This document shows positions 133-64,000 of a DNA stretch of 64,000 nt, in pieces. Position numbers and translations under genes: made by a program. Each line of letters begins with the position of its first letter. The first letter of the stretch is position 1. The DNA is from Chloroflexota bacterium (GTDB lineage: Bacteria; Chloroflexota; UBA11872): NCBI GenBank assembly GCA_026706485.1, contig JAPOYR010000012.1, positions 1-64,000 on the forward strand, read 5' to 3'. The notes under the pieces were generated by a model, which did not search any database, was not told the DNA's origin, and saw nothing but the letters and a program-made list of their open reading frames with translations.

Positions 133-690
133 ATGACGGTCCGTGAAATAGACGACCGAGCCGTGGCAACGTCTGGAAGCGACGACGCGACCGCTGATGC
201 GCTCGTCCAGTCCGCGCGGCAGCTCTTGGTGCTCGGACGGCGCACGGGGCGGATTGCGATGCGGTTTGCCACCGCCCATGCGGATGAGCTTGACCTCACC
301 ATGCCGCAGTTTCAGACGCTGCGCGCCTTGCGCCACCGCAGTTGCCGCATGAGCGATCTCGGCGGTCGGCTGATGGTGAGCAAGCAATGGGCCTCGCAGA
401 GCGTCGACTCGTTGGTTCGCGCGGGCCTGGCGACGCGGGCGGAGGACCCGGACGACCGCCGCCACGCGGTGGTAAGCGCCACGCCGGAGGGTCTCGAGGC
501 ACTCGAGACACACGAGCAGGCCCTCGCCACGTTCCTGGCGGGTGCGCTGGACGGGATGCCCGCCGAGGCGCTCGAACGCCTCGATGAGGCGTTGACTGAG
601 CTGAATGCGCACATGGCCCGGCGCCGCGACCAAGGCTATTTCCGCTCGCTGCGAGAAGCGGGCAAGCGTGAATCCGGAGACAAGACATGA
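133..690 (+). CDS. MarR-family transcriptional regulator
   Basis: A 185-residue winged-helix regulator, probably binding DNA as a dimer and sensing small hydrophobic ligands. Residues about 55-130 hold the MarR helix-turn-helix and wing; the wing motif DPDDRRHAVVSATPEG (about 107-122) is typical of the family. The ATG at 133 sits directly behind a near-consensus promoter and starts a likely leaderless message. The stop codon overlaps the next gene, an ABC exporter subunit, by four bases (ATGA). This regulator-exporter arrangement is common for drug-efflux control, so autorepression and repression of the exporter are the likely role. The ligand cannot be inferred. Confidence 0.88.
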   Translation: MTVREIDDRAVATSGSDDATADALVQSARQLLVLGRRTGRIAMRFATAHADELDLTMPQFQTLRALRHRSCRMSDLGGRLMVSKQWASQSVDSLVRAGLATRAEDPDDRRHAVVSATPEGLEALETHEQALATFLAGALDGMPAEALERLDEALTELNAHMARRRDQGYFRSLREAGKRESGDKT

Positions 691-2753
691 CCGATGAATC
701 CCGCTCGCCGCAGCCTGCTCCCGCTGAGGGGAGAGGCGGCAGGCGCGGCTCGCGACGCCCCGCATCCCAAACGGAACCCGCTGAGGGCGGAAGGGACGGG
801 CGCCGGCGAGGGCCTCGCGGCAGGGGACGACGCGGACGCGGCGACGGAGACGGCCCGCCGGGATTCTCGCCTGGCGACGGTCGCGGACGCGGAGGCCAAC
901 ACGGCGGCGGGCAGCCGCCCATGGGCGAACCGGGTGGAATGCGCTCGGAGCCGCGCATGGCGCTGGGGTCGAGCCAGCAGGTCTTGCGTCGTCTGGCGGC
1001 CTATGCGCTGCCGCATTGGCGGCTCGCGGCGGGGACGCTTGTGGTCACCCTGCTGGCCACGGCGGCCGAATTGGCGATTCCAAAGGTGCTGGAACAAGTG
1101 GTGGACAACGGACTGAAGGAGGGCTTGATCGCCGTCTTGATCGTGCTGGCGGCGATCGTGGTGGCGCTGACGGCCGTGAAGGGCACGGCGCAGTTCGGGC
1201 GCCAGTTCGCCTCCGAGTGGCTGGGCCAGCGGGTCGTGTTCACGATGCGCAACCAGCTTTATCGACATGTCCAGAGCCTGTCGTTTGGCTATCACGACCG
1301 CGCGCGCACCGGCGAGTTGATGTCCCGGACGACGAGTGACGTCGAGCGAGTGCGCCGCTTCGTGTCAATGGGCGCGTTCCAGCTCGTGCAAATCGCGCTG
1401 CTGCTCGTGGGCGCCGCCGTGATGCTGCTGGTCACCGATTGGCAACTGGCCCTGCTGTCGCTGCTCACCGTGCCGGTGATGGCGGTGCTGGCGGTGACAT
1501 TCGCGCACCGCATCCGCCCGCTGTTTCAGGCAGTGCAGGAGGCGTGGGCGGACCTGAACGCCACGGTGCAGGAAAACCTGGCGGGCGCGCGCGTGGTGCG
1601 GGCCTTCGCCCAGGAAGAAATGCAGCGGGCGCGGTTCGAGCCGGTCAACAAGGAGGTCACCGACCGCAACGTGGAGGTGATGCGGCTGTTCGCGATGCGC
1701 ATGCCGCTCTTCACAGCCGTGCTCGGCCTGGGCCAGGTGGCGGTGCTGTGGTACGGCGGATGGAAGGTGATCGAGGGCGAGGCGACCATCGGCGCCCTGT
1801 TGGCGTTCAACGGCTATCTGCTCCTGCTGATGATGCCCGTGCGCATGCTGGGCATGACCATCAACAGCTTTGCGCGGGCGGTGGCCTCGGGCAATCGCAT
1901 CTTCGAGGTCCTGGACGAGCACTCCGAGGTGCAGGAGGCCGCGGACGCCGTGGCGCTTGACGAGGTGCGCGGCGAGCTGCGCTTCGACGGCGTGTCCTTT
2001 GAATACGAGGGTCAGCAGGTGCTGGACGACCTGTCGTTCCGGGTGCGGCCCGGCGAGGCGCTGGGCATCGTCGGCGGCACCGGCTCGGGCAAGAGCACCA
2101 TCATCAATCTCTTGCCGCGGTTCTACGACCCGTCGTCCGGCCGCGTGCTGGTGGACGACGTGGACGTGCGGCAGGCGCGCCTGGCGTCGCTGCGGGGGCA
2201 GATCGGCATCGTGCATCAAGAGCCCTTCGTCTTCGCGACCAGCCTGCGAGAAAACATTGCCTACGGACGCCCCGGCGCGACCGACCAGCAGGTCGAGGCC
2301 GCGGCCCGCGCGGCGCAGATCCACGACTTCGTCGCGGGCCTGCCCCAGGGCTACGCGACGTCCGTGGGCGAGCGCGGCGTCACGCTCTCGGGCGGCCAGA
2401 AGCAACGGATCGCCATTGCCCGGGCGCTGCTGCTCGACCCGCGCATCCTGGTGCTCGACGAGTCGACCTCGAGCGTCGACACCTGGACGGAGCGGGCCAT
2501 TCAGGAAGCCCTGGCGGATGCGCAGCGGGGCCGCACCACGCTCATCATCAGCCAACGGATTCGCAGCGTGCGTGACGCCGCCGAAATCATCGTGCTGGAG
2601 CAGGGACGCATCGTGCAGCGCGGGCGACATGAGGAATTGATCGAGCAGGAAGGCCTCTACCGCGACATGTGGCTCACCCAAGAGGCCGAGGCCGAGGAGC
2701 TGCGCGACGCCCAGGCGGCGCCCGCCGCCCCGAGTCAGGGAGGGGCGGGCTAA
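687..2753 (+). CDS. ABC exporter subunit A (fused TMD-NBD) with Gly/Arg-rich N-terminal extension
   Basis: A 688-residue type IV ABC exporter half-transporter. Residues about 1-105 are low-complexity, rich in Gly, Arg and Pro with RGG-like stretches. The six-helix membrane domain follows, then a nucleotide-binding domain with Walker A GGTGSGKST, signature LSGGQ, Walker B ILVLDES and a switch region reading SQR, where the usual His is Gln. Subunit B next door has LSVGQ in place of LSGGQ, so the two probably form a heterodimer with one degenerate ATP site. The ATG overlaps the marR stop by four bases, which favours this start; internal ATGs (for example 957) would remove the extension. Substrate unknown, likely hydrophobic compounds or lipids. 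Confidence 0.9.
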   Translation: MTDESRSPQPAPAEGRGGRRGSRRPASQTEPAEGGRDGRRRGPRGRGRRGRGDGDGPPGFSPGDGRGRGGQHGGGQPPMGEPGGMRSEPRMALGSSQQVLRRLAAYALPHWRLAAGTLVVTLLATAAELAIPKVLEQVVDNGLKEGLIAVLIVLAAIVVALTAVKGTAQFGRQFASEWLGQRVVFTMRNQLYRHVQSLSFGYHDRARTGELMSRTTSDVERVRRFVSMGAFQLVQIALLLVGAAVMLLVTDWQLALLSLLTVPVMAVLAVTFAHRIRPLFQAVQEAWADLNATVQENLAGARVVRAFAQEEMQRARFEPVNKEVTDRNVEVMRLFAMRMPLFTAVLGLGQVAVLWYGGWKVIEGEATIGALLAFNGYLLLLMMPVRMLGMTINSFARAVASGNRIFEVLDEHSEVQEAADAVALDEVRGELRFDGVSFEYEGQQVLDDLSFRVRPGEALGIVGGTGSGKSTIINLLPRFYDPSSGRVLVDDVDVRQARLASLRGQIGIVHQEPFVFATSLRENIAYGRPGATDQQVEAAARAAQIHDFVAGLPQGYATSVGERGVTLSGGQKQRIAIARALLLDPRILVLDESTSSVDTWTERAIQEALADAQRGRTTLIISQRIRSVRDAAEIIVLEQGRIVQRGRHEELIEQEGLYRDMWLTQEAEAEELRDAQAAPAAPSQGGAG

Positions 2754-4630
2754 TGGGCATGGCGGGACGCATGATGCTGGGGGGCATGGGCGACGACACC
2801 AAGGCCTACGATCACCGGATCGCGCGGCGGCTGCTGGCCTACCTGCTGCCGCACCGGCGACGGCTGGCGGTGGTGTTTGTGCTGGTGGTGCTGGCGGCGG
2901 CAGCGGCGAACGTGGGTCCGCTGCTGCTGAAGATCGGCATTGACGACGGCATTTGCGGCGGCGCGCTTGACTGCAGCGACCTGACCCAGGTCCAGGGCAA
3001 CGGCGGCCTGCTGGCGATCGTCGGGATGGTCTACATCGGATCGCTGGGCCTGATGTGGGCGCTCAACTACTTCCAGGTGCTGCTCACGGCGGCCATCGGC
3101 CAGGCGAGCCTGCGGCAGTTGCGCAACGACATGTTCGCCAAGCTGCAGCGGCTGTCGCTCTCCTATTTCAGCCGGCATCCGCTGGGCGCGGTGATGTCGC
3201 GCATCACCAACGACGTGGACGTCATCAGCGAGTTCGTGACGCTTGGCGTGACGTCGCTGGTCGGCGACGTGGTGATGCTGGTGATCATCGTCGGAATGAT
3301 GTTCGGGCTGGATTGGCGGCTGGCGCTGGTATCCCTGGCGGTGATGCCGCTGATGTGGCTGGCGAGCCGCGTATTCAGCAAATGGGCGCGGAACGCGTTC
3401 CGGCAGGTACGCTCCACCGTGGGCGACGTCTACGGCAACTTGCAGGAGAGCATCGACGGCGTGCGCACGGCGCAGTCGTTCGTGCGCGAGGACCGCAACG
3501 CCGCCGCCTTCGAGCAGACCAACCGGCAGAACGTGGACGCCAGCGTGCGCGCGGGCGCCATCGTGTCGGCGTTCATTCCCGTAGTGGACACAATCTCGGC
3601 GCTGGCGACGGCACTGGTGATCGTCGTCGGTGGCATGTTCGTGATCAACGGCGAGATGGGCGTCGGCACGCTGGTGGCCTTCATCGCGCTGATCGCCCGC
3701 TTCTTCACGCCCATTCAGCAGCTCACGCGCTTCTACAACCAGCTCCAGTCCACCATGGCGGCGGGCGAGAAGATCTTCGAGCTGATCGACGAGCCGCTGG
3801 ACGTCGAGGACCAGTCGGACGCGCGGGCGCTGCCGCAGATCCAGGGACGGGTCGAGTTCGACCACGTGACCTTCGGCTACAACGGGACGGACGTGCTGCA
3901 CGACATCTCGTTCGATGTCGAGCCCGGGCAGCGCGTGGCCCTGGTGGGGCCGACCGGCGCCGGCAAGACGACCACGGTGAACCTGCTGGCCCGCTTCTAC
4001 GAGGCGGGCCGTGGCGAGATCCGCATCGACGGCGTGCCGTTGGACTCGGTGACGCAGGACTCCCTGCGCGGCCAGATGGGCATCGTGCCGCAGGACAGCT
4101 ATCTGTTCTCGGGCACGATCCGCGAGAACATCGCCTTCGCGCGGCCCTACGCCACCGACGAGCAGGTCGTGGAGGCGGCGGAGGCCGTGGGAGCGCACGA
4201 CTTCATCCAGCGGCTGCCGGAAGGCTACGACACCGATGTGCGCGAGCGCGGCGCGCGGCTGTCGGTGGGCCAGCGACAGCTCATCTGCTTCGCTCGCGCG
4301 CTGCTGGCGGACCCACGCCTGCTGATCCTGGACGAGGCCACCTCGAGCGTGGACGCCCACACCGAGCAGATCATCCAGCGCGGCCTCGACCGGCTGATGG
4401 CGGGGCGCACGTCGTTCGTCATCGCGCACCGGCTGGCCACCGTGCGGGGCGCCGACCTGATCCTGGTGTTCCAGGACGGCCAGATCGTGGAGCGCGGCGG
4501 GCACGACGAGCTGCTGGAAGCCGGCGGGCTCTACTACCAGCTCTACACCACCGGCTTCCCCGGCGACGAGACGCCGGAGCAAACCACGGCCACCGAGACC
4601 ATGGTCCTCAACCGCCGGATGTGGATGTAG
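2753..4630 (+). CDS. ABC exporter subunit B (fused TMD-NBD)
   Basis: A 625-residue half-transporter, partner of subunit A. Its ATG overlaps the stop of subunit A by one base (TAATG), which fixes the start. After a short N-terminus there are six membrane helices (residues about 30-335), then an ATPase domain with Walker A GPTGAGKTT, signature LSVGQ (third Gly replaced by Val), Walker B LLILDEATSS and switch His in IAHRLAT. It keeps the catalytic Glu and His but has a weakened signature. This complements the His-to-Gln change in subunit A, as expected for a heterodimeric exporter with one consensus and one degenerate ATP site. Confidence 0.92.
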   Translation: MGMAGRMMLGGMGDDTKAYDHRIARRLLAYLLPHRRRLAVVFVLVVLAAAAANVGPLLLKIGIDDGICGGALDCSDLTQVQGNGGLLAIVGMVYIGSLGLMWALNYFQVLLTAAIGQASLRQLRNDMFAKLQRLSLSYFSRHPLGAVMSRITNDVDVISEFVTLGVTSLVGDVVMLVIIVGMMFGLDWRLALVSLAVMPLMWLASRVFSKWARNAFRQVRSTVGDVYGNLQESIDGVRTAQSFVREDRNAAAFEQTNRQNVDASVRAGAIVSAFIPVVDTISALATALVIVVGGMFVINGEMGVGTLVAFIALIARFFTPIQQLTRFYNQLQSTMAAGEKIFELIDEPLDVEDQSDARALPQIQGRVEFDHVTFGYNGTDVLHDISFDVEPGQRVALVGPTGAGKTTTVNLLARFYEAGRGEIRIDGVPLDSVTQDSLRGQMGIVPQDSYLFSGTIRENIAFARPYATDEQVVEAAEAVGAHDFIQRLPEGYDTDVRERGARLSVGQRQLICFARALLADPRLLILDEATSSVDAHTEQIIQRGLDRLMAGRTSFVIAHRLATVRGADLILVFQDGQIVERGGHDELLEAGGLYYQLYTTGFPGDETPEQTTATETMVLNRRMWM

Positions 4631-53070: not shown

Positions 53071-56000
53071 GTGTTCCGCGTCTCCCCCTACATCGCGCTC
53101 ATCCCCGTCTGTCTAGGCGTATTTGTCGCCGCCGACGACCAGACGGTGATGGTCACCGTGCTGCCGGACATCATGTTCGACTTCCGCATTCCGCCCATCG
53201 AGCTTGACTACGCCTCGTGGACCATCACCGCCTACCTCCTGGGCTATGTGGCCGCGATGCCGCTGATCGGCAGCATGTCCGACGCCTTCGGCCACCGCCG
53301 CATGTTCGCCATCGCCACGGTGTTTTTTATGATCTGCTCGGTGGTGGCCGCCCTTTCGCCCAGCCTGCCGTTTCTCATTGGCATCAGGGTCTTCCAGGCC
53401 GTGGGCGCCGGTGCGATGCTGCCGATCGCGATTGCGGTCGTCGGCGACCTGTTCCCCCGGGGGAGCCGCGGCATCGCGCTCGGCATCGTGGGTGGCTCGG
53501 CGGAGGCGGGGGGCGTCATCGGTCCCCTCTGGGGCGGCCTAGTCGCGCGCTTTCTCGACTGGCCCTGGGTGTTCTGGATGAACGTGCCGCTCGGCGCGCT
53601 CGTCCTGATCGCTCTCTTCCTGCTCCTCGGCCCGAGTCCGCGGTTCAAGTCCTCGCTGGACTACGTGGGCGGGTTCTTCATCGCCGTGGCCCTGGCGTCC
53701 CTGACGCTCGCGCTCTCCCGCATTGATCGGCTGGACCTGGGGATGCTCGGGCTCCTCGCGCTCACGGCCGTGGCCCTGATCGCGTTCATCTACCGCCAGC
53801 GGACGGCGGCGGTCACCCTGCTCCCCAACTCCATGTTCCGCAGCCGCACCGTTGTGATGGCCAACGTGGCCCATTTGATGGTCGGCGTGTCACTGATCAT
53901 CGGCATGGTCACCATCCCCATCATGACCACCTATCTGATCGGCCACTCGCCGCTCGAAGGCGGACTCCGGCTCATGCGCATGACGGTGGCGATGCCGTTC
54001 GGGGCGGTGCTCGGCGGGCTCGCCTGCCAGCGCATCGACTACCGGATCCCGAGCGTGATCGGCCTGATCCTCGTGGCCATCGGCTACGCCTTCATGACCA
54101 CCTGGGACCTGAGCGTCGCCGACCCCCAGCTCACGATCCACCTCGCGCTTGCCGGACTGGGGTTCGGCTTCCTCATTGCTCCCATAGCCCTGGGCGCCAC
54201 CGAGCCCGTCGGCCACGGCGACCGCGGCTCCGCCGCCGCCGCGGTCACGTCGATGCGATTGGTGGGCATGACGCTCGGCCTCGCGGCGATCACGGCCTGG
54301 GGATCCCAGCGCTTCTCACTGCTCGTGGCCGGCATCCCCATGCCCGTTCCCCAGGAAGGCGAGGCGATTGAAGTCTCGCGCCAACGGGTCGCCGAGTTCC
54401 AAGAAACCCTCACCAACATCGGCATGGACGTGTTCGTCACGTTCTTTGCCGTCGCGGCCGTAGTCGCCGCCCTGGGCATCCTCCCCGCCTTCCTCATGAC
54501 CTGGAACCGCACCCGCAGCCGGAGGCCCCGCAACACCCCCAGACCGCGTGAGCGACGATGCGAGGCACTCTGTCGAGCTGCTGCGGATAGCGTGCGACCC
54601 GTTGGGGAAGGCTGGACAGTGACCTACGACCCGCGGCGCGCACTTGAACTGCTCCGGCTGGGCACGCAGCAGCCGCACGCGATTTTTCGCGAGGGCCAAG
54701 AGGAGTCCATCCGCCATGTCGTTGAGGGCTGCGGACCGCTTCTGCTGGTGCAGAAGACCGGCTGGGGCAAGAGCAACGTCTACTTCATCGCGGCGAAACT
54801 TCTGCGCGAGGCGGGGCAAGGGCCGGCGCTCCTCATTTCGCCGCTGCTGGCGCTGATGCGGAATCAAATCGAGGCGGCCAAGCGCATGAGCGTCCGTGCG
54901 GCCACGATCAACTCCGACAACAGAGACGAGTGGGAAGTTGTCGAGGCGCAGATTCGCCGTGACGCTATCGACGTGCTGCTCATCTCGCCTGAGCGGCTGG
55001 CCAACGAGCGCTTCGTCCAGGATGTGCTGGCTCCCATGTCCGACCGGATCGCCCTGCTGGTGATCGACGAGGCGCATTGCATCTCGGACTGGGGCCACGA
55101 CTTTCGACCGGACTACCGGCGCATTGAACGGATCATCGGAACGCTGCCGCCAAACCTGCGACTGCTGGGAACGACGGCCACCGCCAACGACCGTGTGCTG
55201 GAGGACCTGAGGGGCATGCTTGGCCCGCGTGTCATTGTGCAGCGGGGCGGGTTGGCCCGACCGTCGCTGCTGCTCCAGACGATACGTTTGCCCAATCAGG
55301 CCCAGCGCCTCGCTTGGCTGGCTGAGCGGCTGCGCGAGGTGCGTGGCAGCGGCATCATCTACACCCTGACCGTCCGGGACGCGGAGCGGGTGGCCGCTTG
55401 GCTGCAATCACGCGGATTCGCTGCGGCGGCGTATACGGGACAGACGGGAGATCGCCGGCCGGAGTTTGAGCAGGCGCTGCTGGACAACCGGGTCAAGGCA
55501 CTGGCGGCGACCACGGCGCTGGGTATGGGATTCGACAAGCCTGATTTGGCTTTCGTCTTCCACTACCAGGCGCCGGGGTCGGTGATTCACTACTACCAGC
55601 AGGTGGGCCGTGCTGGCCGGGCGCTGGATGCGGCCTACGGCGTGCTGCTTAGCGGTGATGAAGACACGGACATCACCAGCTACTTCATTCGCTCCGCGTT
55701 TCCGACGCGACACGAGGTAGCGGAGGTGCTGGGGGCTCTAAAGGATGAGCCCGACGGCCTCTCGGTTCAGGAACTCACGCACCGCGCGAACATCAGCCCA
55801 GGTCGAATCAGGAGCACGCTCAAACTGCTGTCGCTTGAGTCGCCCGCTCCAATTGCCCTCGATGGCAGGCGGTGGCAACTCGTGGCGACCGAATTGACGG
55901 ACGCGTTTTGGGAGCGAGTGGAACGCTTGACGGCCCTGCGCTATCGGGAACAGGCGCAGATGCAGGAGTATGTGGATCTGCCTGCGGGTCACATGGAGTT

Positions 56001-56691
56001 TCTGATCGATGCGCTTGATGGGGAGTCCAGCGCTTTCACGCCGCCGCGGATCGAGCCGCTGTCAAGCACAGTCGACCCCAGACTGGTACGAGAAGCGGTG
56101 GCCTTCCTCCGCCGCACCGACTTCCAGATTGAGCCGCGCAAGCGCTGGCCAACTGGCGGACGGCGTGACGTGCAGCAACGTCTGGTAATCCCCCAGGACC
56201 TTCAAGCTGAATCCGGGCGAGCGCTGTGCCTGTGGGGGGATGCTGGCTGGGGAGAGCTGGTTCGACATGGGAAGTACCAAGACCAGCGCTTCCAGGATGA
56301 GCTGGTGGATGCCTGCGCGACGCTGGTACGCGAGTGGAGGCCGGTACCCGCGCCTATGTGGGTCACTGCCATTCCTTCGCGGCGGCGTCCTACGCTTGTG
56401 CCGGACTTCGCCGAGCGCTTGGCCAAGGAATTGGGTCTTCCATTTCATGTCGTGCTTGGGCGTATGCGCGATCATCAGGAACAGAAGGAGATGGAAAACA
56501 GCGCCTATCAAGCTCGCAATGTCTGGGAGTCGTTGGTCGTGAGCAATGCGCCCCCGCCTGGCCCCGTGCTTCTCGTGGACGACATCGTGGACTCCCGCTG
56601 GACGATGACCGTGGCGGCGTACAAGCTTCGATCCGAAGGAAGTGACGAAGTCTTTCCCATGGCGCTTACTCTGGCGGGCGGTGTCGCGTGA
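53071..56691 (+). CDS. MFS (DHA2-like) transporter whose frame runs into the RecQ-like gene
   Basis: One uninterrupted 1206-codon frame. Residues 1-480 are a complete major-facilitator drug-exporter-like protein with about 14 membrane helices: motif [10 protein letters not shown], motif [24 protein letters not shown] 53071 has GAGG upstream. After [20 protein letters not shown] there is no stop codon, and residues 517-1206 are the RecQ-like/phosphoribosyltransferase protein. An internal GTG at 54619 with a strong GGGGAAGG site suggests the helicase is also, or only, translated separately. Either the transporter stop was lost, or the DNA-processing genes were inserted just before it. A bona fide fusion is possible but unusual. 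Confidence 0.7.
54619..56691 (+). CDS. RecQ-like helicase with C-terminal ComF-like phosphoribosyltransferase domain
   Basis: A 690-residue protein if started at GTG 54619 (GAAGG seven bases upstream). The superfamily 2 helicase core has Q-motif FREGQEESI, motif [13 protein letters not shown], motif [22 protein letters not shown], motif [11 protein letters not shown], motif [21 protein letters not shown] and motif [16 protein letters not shown]. The zinc region of RecQ is present in outline ([20 protein letters not shown]), but its cysteines are gone. The last 145 residues form a PRTase fold: [20 protein letters not shown] and [20 protein letters not shown], the PRPP-binding loop of ComFC-like proteins. 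Stop overlaps the DprA-like gene (GTGA). Likely DNA processing or defence. Confidence 0.85.
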
Positions 56692-57983
56692 TCAGCGAGC
56701 TTTCGGCCAACACTCAGGCCATTCTCTTGCTGACGGCGCCGCTGATCGTCGGTCGGCGCACCCCCGCAGCCGAAGTGTTGCAGCCGCGCGAGTACAACAA
56801 GCTCGCCCAACTCCTCCACGAATACAGCCGGGAGCCAGCCGATCTGCTGAGTCCCGAGGCATCCCGGTTACTGAACGATGATTGGCTACGCGCCCAAATT
56901 GACTCGGACAGGGTCGGCCAGCTACTCGCCAGGGGTTTCCTGCTTAGCCAGGCGGTCGAGCAGTGGCAGCAACGGGCGATCTGGGTGTTGAGCCGCGCCG
57001 ACGACCAATACCCCCAACGGTTGAAGGTGCGTTTGGGAAGCAAAGCGCCCGCCATCCTCTATGGCTGTGGCGACCGAGACATCCTGGACTCCGGCGGCTT
57101 GGCCGTCGTCGGCTCGCGACACGTGGACGACAAACTTCGAGCCTACGCGGCGGGGGTCGGTGAACTCGTCGCCAACGCCGAGTGGACGCTTGTATCCGGC
57201 GGCGCGCGGGGAATCGATCAGGCGTCCATGCGGGGCGCGCTCGAAGCCGGGGGGCGGGTCGTGGGCGTGCTGAGCAACGACCTGCAGCGGGCGGCGCTGC
57301 GTCGCGAGCACCGTGAGGTGCTGATGGACGGACGGCTAGCGCTGATTTCGCCCTACGACCCCTCGGCGGGCTTCAACGTCGGCAATGCGATGCGGCGCAA
57401 CAAACTGGTCTACGCCCTTGCCGATGCGGGGCTCGTTGCGAGCTCGGATCACAAGAAGGGCGGGACCTGGGCCGGCGCGGTTGAGCAACTCGATGAGTTG
57501 AAGCTCGTGCCGGTCTATGTGCGGTCAGGCTCGGACAAGGCGCTTCAGGCGCTCATCGACAAGGGCGCCTATCCGTGGCCGGATCCTCAAACGCCGGAAG
57601 AGTTTTGGGACAAGCTCGATTCGTCGGTGCCTGCGTCCGGGCAGCCCGAGCTCCCCATTGAGACGAGCGACGAGCGCATGGAACACGACGCCGTGCGCCC
57701 AGAATCGGAGGCGCACGATGAGCCAGCGGATTTGGCGGTCGCACGCGGTGCGCCGGACGAGATGCTCTTTGCCAAGGTTGCCGAGTTAGTGATCGAAATG
57801 ACCACGCCTACCCCCAAGTCGTTGGACGAGATCACGACCGCCCTTGGAGTCTCCAGGCCCCAGGCCACGGCCTGGCTGAAGCGGCTGGTCGGCGAGGGCA
57901 AGCTGGAAAAACAATTGCGCCCTGCCCGCTACCAGCCGGTGACGCAGGCGACTCTGCTGCTCGATCAGCCCGAGGACTCCTGA
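56688..57983 (+). CDS. DprA/Smf-like Rossmann-fold protein
   Basis: A 431-residue protein. The DprA/SLOG fold is clear: [20 protein letters not shown] (residues about 136-155), [20 protein letters not shown] with GGRVVGVL, then [18 protein letters not shown] and [20 protein letters not shown]. The N-terminal 120 residues are helical and unlike classical DprA. The C-terminus (about 365-425) has a winged helix: [23 protein letters not shown] 56688 overlaps the helicase stop by four bases. Classical DprA loads RecA onto transforming DNA; SLOG-fold relatives bind nucleotides. Pairing with a RecQ-PRTase suggests a dedicated two-gene system. Exact role unknown. Confidence 0.85.
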
Positions 57984-58077
57984 GGATTCCGGCCTAGATC
58001 GACAGCTCGGGGGGCTGCCGCGCTGGCCCGTGCCGTACGCTGGCGGGCCAGGCGAACAGTCGGAGTAAGCGACGGCC

Positions 58078-61929: not shown

Positions 61930-61964
61930 CTTTGCTGCCTTCAGCGCCGCGATTGAAGACTCAA

Positions 61965-62771
61965 ATGGCTCCTCCAAACCCGAAGCGACAGAAAGAAGCC
62001 CGAAGAGTACTTGATGAACTGTTCGATCGGCCCGACAAGGTATCAGTAATCCACTACTCCTGTGAGAGCTTCTACAACCGCCAAGACGGTAGCTCACCTA
62101 GAATCACATCAGTCGCTGTGCGCCGCCTTGACTATGGTCATACGGCTTCATTCTCGATTCACCAAACGGCTGAGATTCGGAGAATTCCGTTCGACAGAAT
62201 CACAGACCATTATGACGATCTGGAAAAGGAGATGCTAGGACGCCTGTCTGCCTACTTTGATAGGTCTATGGAGATGACCTATTTGCATTGGAACATGAGA
62301 GATTCCAACTATGGGTTTCAGGCTATTGAGCATCGATTCCGGGTCTTGCATGAGCACGGATGCGAGCCACACGTAGTCGACGACAAGTCGAAGGTAGACT
62401 TGTCCCGGCTATTGTACGATATTTATGGTGCAGATTATATCGCCCACCCAAGACTAGCGGTATTGTCGCATAAGAATGATATCATGCCGCTTGACTTCCT
62501 GCCCGGAGCACAAGAGGCTAGCGCTTTCGAAGAAAAAGACTTCGCCGCCTTACATATGTCCACCCTAAGGAAGGTGGAAGTCATCGCTAAAATTGCCGTG
62601 CGAGCTCACGACCGGAACTTGAAGACAGATGCGACATGGTGGGATATGCGCGGTGGACGAATAGTGGCTAGTCTCACTTGGCTTGGAGAGCACCCGCTAC
62701 TCACCGTAGCCCTGGGGATCGTAGGTGTTGCTTCGCTTGTGCTGGCGATGGTTTGTATGTTTTGGCCGTAG
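61965..62771 (+). CDS. Unknown protein with C-terminal membrane helix
   Basis: A 268-residue protein I do not recognise. Basic N-terminus (NPKRQKEARRVLDELFD), then VSVIHYSCESFYNRQDGSSP and ASFSIHQTAEIRRI, which look like strands of a compact alpha/beta domain. A strongly patterned centre follows: EMTYLHWNMRDSNYGFQAIE, HRFRVLHE, and VDLSRLLYDIYGADYIAHPR. The C-terminus is one membrane helix (LLTVALGIVGVASLVLAMVC). Much less GC-rich than core genes (roughly half G+C). ATG 61965 chosen; TTG 61932 possible. A membrane-tethered effector is conceivable, but no function can be claimed. Confidence 0.75.
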   Translation: MAPPNPKRQKEARRVLDELFDRPDKVSVIHYSCESFYNRQDGSSPRITSVAVRRLDYGHTASFSIHQTAEIRRIPFDRITDHYDDLEKEMLGRLSAYFDRSMEMTYLHWNMRDSNYGFQAIEHRFRVLHEHGCEPHVVDDKSKVDLSRLLYDIYGADYIAHPRLAVLSHKNDIMPLDFLPGAQEASAFEEKDFAALHMSTLRKVEVIAKIAVRAHDRNLKTDATWWDMRGGRIVASLTWLGEHPLLTVALGIVGVASLVLAMVCMFWP

Positions 62772-62938
62772 GTGTGGCTGTAGGATGACGGAGCAGAATA
62801 TCGTGAGAGGCATGGGTTCGGTTGCGGTGGTGTTGCTGGTGTGTGCGGGCTAGGTCGGTCTCGGAAGAAATTGAGCCCAGGCGGCTTCCATACGTGTGGT
62901 GGTTCGGAGTGGGCGATCGTGCAACCGTGCGGTGCCCG

Positions 62939-63595
62939 TCACGCGGCGAATGGATGAAATGGCGGGCAGCCGGCCAGCACGTAGCCCGCGGCAGACAGGC
63001 CCACAGCCCACCACAGAGCGTTGGTAAATCGGCGCGCTTGCCACTGCGATCGGTAGTCACTTATATCGGCGTGGATCAAGGACTGTCCTAGCCTGGGGGC
63101 TTCGTCTAAGCGGTGATAGCGTGGGGTGCCGTGGTCATCCCAACGAATGAGACGCGAGGCGACCGACAGCGCTAGGCGTGCGACATTGATACCGCGCTGA
63201 TTGGCAGGAAAGACGCGCGGCGCGTATCGTTCGAAGTCTCGAAGCAGCGGCCCAATGCCAGGCCTCACGGCATCAGCTAGGAGATGTTTCGCGGCTACGA
63301 AGTAAGATCGCCGTGTGATTCGGAGCTCTGCTGGATATCTCTGCAGATATCGGTCGAGGCGGCCGGATTCTTCAGTACGGAATTGAACTGTCGGCAAGCT
63401 CCAATACGTCTGAAAGTATTTCCAACCATAGCAGCCGGCACAACTTTTCCATCCGTCTGGGGCATGGCAGGAACACTTACACGCAAAAGGGGCACACGCA
63501 TAGAGGCCCTCAATCTCGGCAGTGCTTGGTTCCCTCGTTACCATTCGCATGGGAGCTCTGGGCGCGGGCAGGTGGTCGGGGCTAGCGTCAGCCAT
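62939..63595 (-). CDS. Unknown Cys-cluster protein with C-terminal membrane segment
   Basis: A 218-residue protein I do not recognise. A cysteine/histidine cluster at about residues 33-55 reads CAPFACKCSCHAP and WKSCAGCYGWKYF, suggesting a small zinc-binding module. The middle is helical and basic (RYLQRYPAELRITRRSYFVA, LLADAVRPGIGPLLRDFERY). One hydrophobic segment near the C-terminus (ALWWAVGLSAAGYVLAG) is probably a membrane anchor. ATG 63595; the ATG at 63550 is an alternative. It follows the partial gene at the window edge by 32 bases on the same strand, so they may be an operon. AT-richer than core genes. Confidence 0.55.
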   Translation of the reverse strand: MADASPDHLPAPRAPMRMVTREPSTAEIEGLYACAPFACKCSCHAPDGWKSCAGCYGWKYFQTYWSLPTVQFRTEESGRLDRYLQRYPAELRITRRSYFVAAKHLLADAVRPGIGPLLRDFERYAPRVFPANQRGINVARLALSVASRLIRWDDHGTPRYHRLDEAPRLGQSLIHADISDYRSQWQARRFTNALWWAVGLSAAGYVLAGCPPFHPFAA

Positions 63596-63627
63596 TGGGC
63601 TCGCTGTATCGAGTCGTGCTCGACAAC

Positions 63628-64000
63628 CTACTCGTCGCCCCGAATCATCTCAAGCAGGTCAAGGCCCCCCGACGGCATCACGCGGGCACCCTCTGGCGTG
63701 TCGCCGGAATCGAAGATTTCGGCCCAGTAGTCATTGTTTCGTTTGGTGCCAAACAGCGAAAGCGACAAGTCTTTGTTTACCCAAAGCGGAAGACGCTTGA
63801 GGGCACCGATGAAGTTTCTGATATTGCCCCAACAGACCTCAGGCACTTCCCGTTGAAATACTCTGTTGTCGTCGGTCACTGGCCGCCCTGTATTCAAGAA
63901 GTATTGCAGCACAACAGAACGCGATAACCTCACCCAATTGTGAAGAATCTCTTCCTTTGACATCCGGAATGCGCGAAGGTGATCCTCCGCAATGTCACTC
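63628..64000 (-). CDS. Unknown protein, 5' end beyond the window
   Basis: At least 123 codons, open to the right edge. The frame upstream of the ATG at 63963 still reads like protein (SDIAEDHLRAFR then MSKEEILHNWVRLSRSVVLQ), so the true start is probably outside. C-terminal part: FLNTGRPVTDDNRVFQREVP, CWGNIRNFIGALKRLPLWVN and AEIFDSGDTPEGARVMPSGG. About half G+C, unlike the core genes. Not recognised. It is transcribed towards the Cys-cluster gene. Partial, so length and domain content cannot be judged. Confidence 0.6.
   Translation of the reverse strand, partial: SDIAEDHLRAFRMSKEEILHNWVRLSRSVVLQYFLNTGRPVTDDNRVFQREVPEVCWGNIRNFIGALKRLPLWVNKDLSLSLFGTKRNNDYWAEIFDSGDTPEGARVMPSGGLDLLEMIRGDE

What the first reader, a model, noticed from the sequence alone, without database searches (positions are those of the whole stretch)
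54619..57983. Two-gene RecQ-like helicase/phosphoribosyltransferase plus DprA-like system
A RecQ-type helicase carrying a ComF-like PRTase domain is translationally coupled to a DprA-like protein with its own winged helix. Helicase, ComF-type PRTase and DprA are each known from natural transformation, and DprA/SLOG-fold proteins have been proposed as nucleotide sensors in conflict systems. Packing all three activities into a two-gene cassette next to unrelated housekeeping genes suggests a compact DNA-processing or anti-mobile-element module. I cannot name it as a described system.
Basis: partly seen in the sequence, partly recalled or inferred. Interest (0 to 1): 0.85.

Follow-up and report, generated by a model that had tools for sequence, protein, structure and literature searches.

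The report
PsyrTA (RqlHI) toxin-antitoxin phage-defence pair
This two-gene cassette is a clear copy of an already named bacterial toxin-antitoxin and phage-defence system (PsyrTA, also called RqlHI), carried by an unnamed bacterium between two ordinary genes, so it is a sound observation but not a new system.

Summary
At 54619-56691 there is a RecQ-like helicase with a C-terminal ComF-like phosphoribosyltransferase (PRTase). It overlaps by 4 bases (GTGA) a DprA-like protein with a C-terminal winged helix at 56688-57983. The claim that the system is unnamed is wrong: PADLOC models PsyrT and PsyrA match at 2e-261 and 4e-129 over nearly their whole length. It is also the RqlH-RqlI operon of pathogenic E. 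coli (48% and 36% identical to the UPEC 536 copy), in which RqlI restrains PRTase-dependent genotoxicity of RqlH (PMC4670107). The residues tested there (K49, D148, D663) are all present (window K51, D150, D655). The PRTase model matches ComF and the toxin ShosT. Three of five sister genomes have an empty site between the same flanking genes; one carries psyrTA; one has a Type IIG restriction gene in place of psyrT with psyrA kept. Close relatives sit in BREX and restriction loci. Minor points: the window's clade lacks the RecQ zinc-site cysteines, and a 37-bp deletion puts the upstream transporter in frame with psyrT. Ordinary; low interest.

The parts
54619..56691 (+). psyrT / rqlH: RecQ-like helicase (about residues 20-405) with C-terminal ComF-like PRTase (about residues 500-690); predicted toxin
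   Evidence: PADLOC PsyrT 2.3e-261; RecQ TIGR01389 2.1e-74; K51, D150, D655 align with E. coli RqlH K49, D148, D663; PRTase model matches ComF 7p0h and ShosT 8zvd
56688..57983 (+). psyrA / rqlI: DprA-like (SLOG/Rossmann) protein with N-terminal helical domain and C-terminal winged helix; predicted antitoxin and possible sensor
   Evidence: PADLOC PsyrA 4e-129, ShosA 2.7e-24; PF02481 2.4e-34; AlphaFold model pLDDT 86.8
56688..56691 (+). GTGA overlap of psyrT stop and psyrA start
   Evidence: sequence
54553..58027 (.). approximate extent of the psyrTA segment absent from the empty sites of G001, G002 and G005
   Evidence: flank alignments

Best explanation
This is a horizontally spread PsyrTA (RqlHI) toxin-antitoxin / phage-defence operon. 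PsyrT is a helicase-PRTase toxin and PsyrA is a DprA-like antitoxin made from an overlapping gene. In resting cells PsyrA binds PsyrT, probably its PRTase domain, and keeps it quiet. Disturbed DNA replication during phage infection, perhaps sensed through the DNA-binding DprA part or the helicase, would lift that block. The PRTase would then act on nucleotides or DNA with PRPP-type chemistry and cause genotoxic stress that stops the infected cell from making phage. Shown here: membership, gene order, conserved catalytic residues, PRTase fold, presence/absence at one site among sister genomes, and defence neighbourhoods of close relatives. Shown elsewhere for E. coli RqlHI: PRTase-dependent toxicity, relief by RqlI, and physical interaction. 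Inferred: the trigger, the exact chemistry, and that this copy is active and protects against phage.
For: PADLOC PsyrT and PsyrA match at 2.3e-261 and 4e-129. Same gene order as E. coli UPEC 536 and an E. coli plasmid copy, 47-48% and 36% identity. Toxicity and helicase residues conserved: K51, D150, D655 (against PMC4670107). PRTase fold matches ComF and ShosT. Empty, occupied and RM-replaced alleles at one site in sister genomes. In G004 the putative toxin gene is destroyed while psyrA stays open except for its C-terminal part, as a toxin-antitoxin pair predicts. Relatives embedded in BREX and type I RM loci. The tree mixes many phyla in the window's clade. The related ShosTA is described as a PRTase/pyrophosphatase toxin with a DprA antitoxin that defends against phage (PMC12593503; PMC9122126).
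Against: No activity data for this copy. In one native-host study no protection by a PsyrTA was detected (PMC12409345). The immediate neighbours in the window are an MFS transporter and a Zincin_2 protein, not a defence island. Many Actinomycetota and haloarchaea have psyrT without a detectable psyrA, so the toxin role may not hold for the whole family. The psyrT leader differs from its sister's by 37-bp and 1-bp deletions upstream.
Confidence: 0.85

Rival explanations
1. It is a DNA-repair or DNA-uptake module (helicase + ComF-like PRTase + DprA) that serves natural transformation or recombination rather than defence.
For: ComF-like PRTase fold and DprA homology are both known from transformation. 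Solitary actinobacterial RqlH, an active helicase in M. smegmatis (reference title quoted in PMC5512222), has no adjacent antitoxin.
Against: The genome has a separate canonical DprA over the curated cut-off. The cassette is absent from three of five sister genomes. Relatives lie in BREX and RM loci and on plasmids. E. coli RqlH is genotoxic without RqlI (PMC4670107).
Confidence: 0.1
2. The copy is decaying and no longer works: the upstream deletions fused it in frame to the transporter gene or removed its original start.
For: 37-bp deletion in the MFS tail and 1-bp deletion in the leader relative to G003 and G004. A relic in G004 shows that loss happens at this site.
Against: Both genes are full length and without stops. 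The conserved part of the family begins just after the GTG at 54619. All tested catalytic residues are kept.
Confidence: 0.1
3. A novel, undescribed helicase-PRTase-DprA defence system.
Against: Near full-length matches to the PsyrT and PsyrA models and the same architecture as RqlHI (PMC4670107).
Confidence: 0.01

Closest known systems
PsyrTA (syrTA; Sberro et al. 2013; PADLOC PsyrT/PsyrA)
   Same: Both genes, order, overlap, full-length profile match
   Different: Window clade lacks the cysteines of the RecQ zinc site; otherwise no difference detected
RqlH-RqlI of extraintestinal pathogenic E. coli (PMC4670107)
   Same: Same architecture and operon; K49, D148 and D663 conserved; 48% and 36% identity to the UPEC 536 copy
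   Different: E. coli RqlH has the cysteine motif; chromosomal site between gntU and yhgN instead of MFS/zincin
ShosTA (PMC9122126; PDB 8zvb, 8zvd, 9vzo)
   Same: DprA-like antitoxin (PADLOC ShosA 2.7e-24) and PRTase toxin with similar fold
   Different: ShosT has no RecQ helicase domain (own knowledge; not tested here)
Actinobacterial solitary RqlH (Mycobacterium smegmatis type; Ordonez et al. 2012, cited in PMC5512222)
   Same: Helicase-PRTase protein of the same family
   Different: No adjacent DprA partner detected; separate branch of the tree

Membership tests
PsyrTA / RqlHI | Toxin gene: RecQ-like helicase fused to a C-terminal PRTase, about 690 aa | tested here: met
   PADLOC PsyrT residues 1-684 on profile 1-682/689; PRTase fold
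PsyrTA / RqlHI | Adjacent downstream DprA-like antitoxin gene | tested here: met
   PADLOC PsyrA residues 5-416 on profile 3-395/398; GTGA overlap
PsyrTA / RqlHI | Walker A lysine, DEAH box and PRTase DD motif needed for RqlH function or toxicity (K49, D148, D663) | tested here: met
   K51, D150 and D655 align exactly; mutant data in PMC4670107
PsyrTA / RqlHI | PsyrT/RqlH alone is toxic and PsyrA/RqlI neutralises it | not testable with these tools
   Shown for E. coli in PMC4670107; indirect support from G004, where psyrT is destroyed and psyrA is retained in part
PsyrTA / RqlHI | Anti-phage activity | not testable with these tools
   Defence neighbourhoods of relatives only
Competence machinery (ComFA/ComFC/DprA) | Is the genome's canonical DprA, or lies in a com operon | tested here: not met
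   Canonical DprA is at G000:C6 (234 bits, over cut-off); the window copy scores 86 bits, under it; flanks are MFS and Zincin_2
ShosTA | PRTase toxin without helicase plus DprA of the ShosA type | tested here: not met
   A helicase domain is present; the DprA-like protein scores 429 bits for PsyrA against 84 for ShosA

The most novel reading that the evidence does not exclude
The window's clade is a distinct PsyrT variant that has lost the RecQ zinc site and may be regulated differently; and in this genome the in-frame open frame with the MFS transporter might give a membrane-anchored MFS-PsyrT fusion.
Probability: 0.07. Interest if true: 0.35.

Novelty: already known. Interest (0 to 1): 0.12.

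Why it matters
It extends PsyrTA/RqlHI to another lineage. One genus here shows several states of one site: empty, occupied, occupied with a shifted leader, and toxin replaced by a restriction gene. That is a small natural record of how such defence cassettes come and go. The chemistry of the helicase-linked PRTase is still open in the family.

Tried and rejected
Megablast of the locus against plasmids gave no match; the protein search did. A novel system was rejected. A competence role was considered and disfavoured; the ComEC family gave only partial matches under cut-off, so competence of the host was not settled. Window ORFs at 61932-63963 gave no PADLOC or Pfam match. The Sberro 2013 and Ordonez 2012 papers are not held, so both are cited through other papers. 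Loci called 'absent' for PsyrA rest on BLAST with the window's PsyrA at 1e-5 and may hide diverged partners.

Full report
Observation. Gene 1 has RecQ-type helicase domains (Pfam DEAD 8.7e-22, Helicase_C 1.5e-12; TIGR recQ 2.1e-74) and a weakly scored PRTase domain (Pfam 18.7 bits, below the 26.3 cut-off). A model of its last 241 residues, made from 48 homologues, has mean pLDDT 89.9. Its best PDB match is Helicobacter pylori ComF (7p0h); other PRTases follow, and ShosT (8zvd, 8zvb) is in the list. TM-scores are modest (0.46 on the query for ComF). Gene 2 is DprA-like (PF02481 2.4e-34). Its model shows an N-terminal helical part, a Rossmann core, a low-confidence linker (317-354) and a C-terminal winged-helix-like domain (356-417).

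Identity. The PADLOC library names both at once: PsyrT, 2.3e-261 over residues 1-684, and PsyrA, 4e-129 over 5-416. The same operon is known as rqlHI in extraintestinal pathogenic E. coli (PMC4670107). The UPEC 536 copy is 48% and 36% identical, in the same order. In that study RqlH was genotoxic without RqlI, toxicity needed the PRTase residue D663, helicase residues K49 and D148 modulated it, and RqlI bound RqlH through the PRTase part. These residues correspond one to one to window K51, D150 and D655. Rousset et al. 2022 (PMC9122126) already group shosTA, syrTA and rqlHI as DprA-antitoxin systems. A 2025 review reports that ShosT is a phosphoribosyltransferase and pyrophosphatase that disturbs purine pools, countered by DNA-binding ShosA (PMC12593503).

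Site. The flanking MFS gene and Zincin_2 gene are conserved in all five sister genomes. In G001, G002 and G005 they are separated by roughly 140-210 bases with no cassette. G003 carries psyrTA, 78% and 85% identical. In G004 only the first 40 codons (with a stop) and about 25 late codons of psyrT remain, a Type IIG restriction-methylation gene and a specificity gene lie between them, and psyrA (332 aa, without the winged helix) is still open. The site therefore seems to gain and exchange defence cassettes, and the loss is one-sided: toxin gone, antitoxin core kept. That is what a toxin-antitoxin pair predicts, though one case is not proof.

Relatives. In plasmids, 11 records have a match over at least 80% of PsyrT. 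Of 84 loci from genomes and viral contigs, psyrA follows psyrT directly in 42, is not detected in 34, and 8 end too early. The tree puts most unpaired forms in an actinobacterial branch, while the window's clade of 21 rows holds 18 paired forms from many phyla. This agrees with the published split between Gram-negative and Gram-positive bacteria. Copies lie inside a type I RM operon on an E. coli plasmid and inside BREX in Acinetobacter. Of ten large neighbours tested in six close loci, eight match BREX (PglZ, BrxL), type I RM, HerA or other defence models. Those ten were picked by size and nearness, not at random.

Not competence. The genome has a canonical dprA elsewhere that passes the curated cut-off, which the window gene does not.

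Small differences. (1) All 21 PsyrT of the window's clade have at most one cysteine in the stretch where all others counted have two to four, so this clade has probably lost the RecQ zinc site. (2) A 37-bp deletion in the MFS tail and a 1-bp deletion in the leader leave MFS and psyrT in one open frame of 1206 codons. In G003 and G004 the MFS stop overlaps a GTG in the psyrT frame. The conserved family N-terminus starts next to GTG 54619, so independent initiation is the simpler reading.

Mechanism. Best supported: PsyrA holds PsyrT in check; phage-disturbed DNA replication releases it; the PRTase then causes genotoxic stress that aborts the infection. Membership, residues, fold and presence/absence are shown here. 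Toxicity and interaction are shown in E. coli by others. Trigger, chemistry and activity of this copy are inferred. A native-host study found no protection by its PsyrTA under the conditions tested (PMC12409345), so phage defence by the family should be held with some caution.

Verdict. A correct and careful observation of an already known system. Interest is low.

Noticed in passing
window 53071-56691: MFS transporter and psyrT form one open frame of 1206 codons after a 37-bp deletion in the MFS tail (and a 1-bp deletion in the leader) relative to sister genomes.
   Followed up: partly
L055 (G004:C30:129800-134800), 620-4476: At the same site psyrT is replaced by a Type IIG restriction-methylation gene plus specificity gene, with psyrT remnants at both ends and psyrA kept without its winged helix.
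   Followed up: yes
PsyrT clade of 21 rows: The clade holding the window lacks the cysteines of the RecQ zinc site that other PsyrT/RqlH proteins keep.
   Followed up: partly
L030 6088-7400 (Sinorhizobium meliloti pSymB): psyrA next to an intact psyrT matches in two reading frames, so the antitoxin gene may be frameshifted there.
   Followed up: no
window 61932-63963: Three ORFs without any Pfam or PADLOC match.
   Followed up: no
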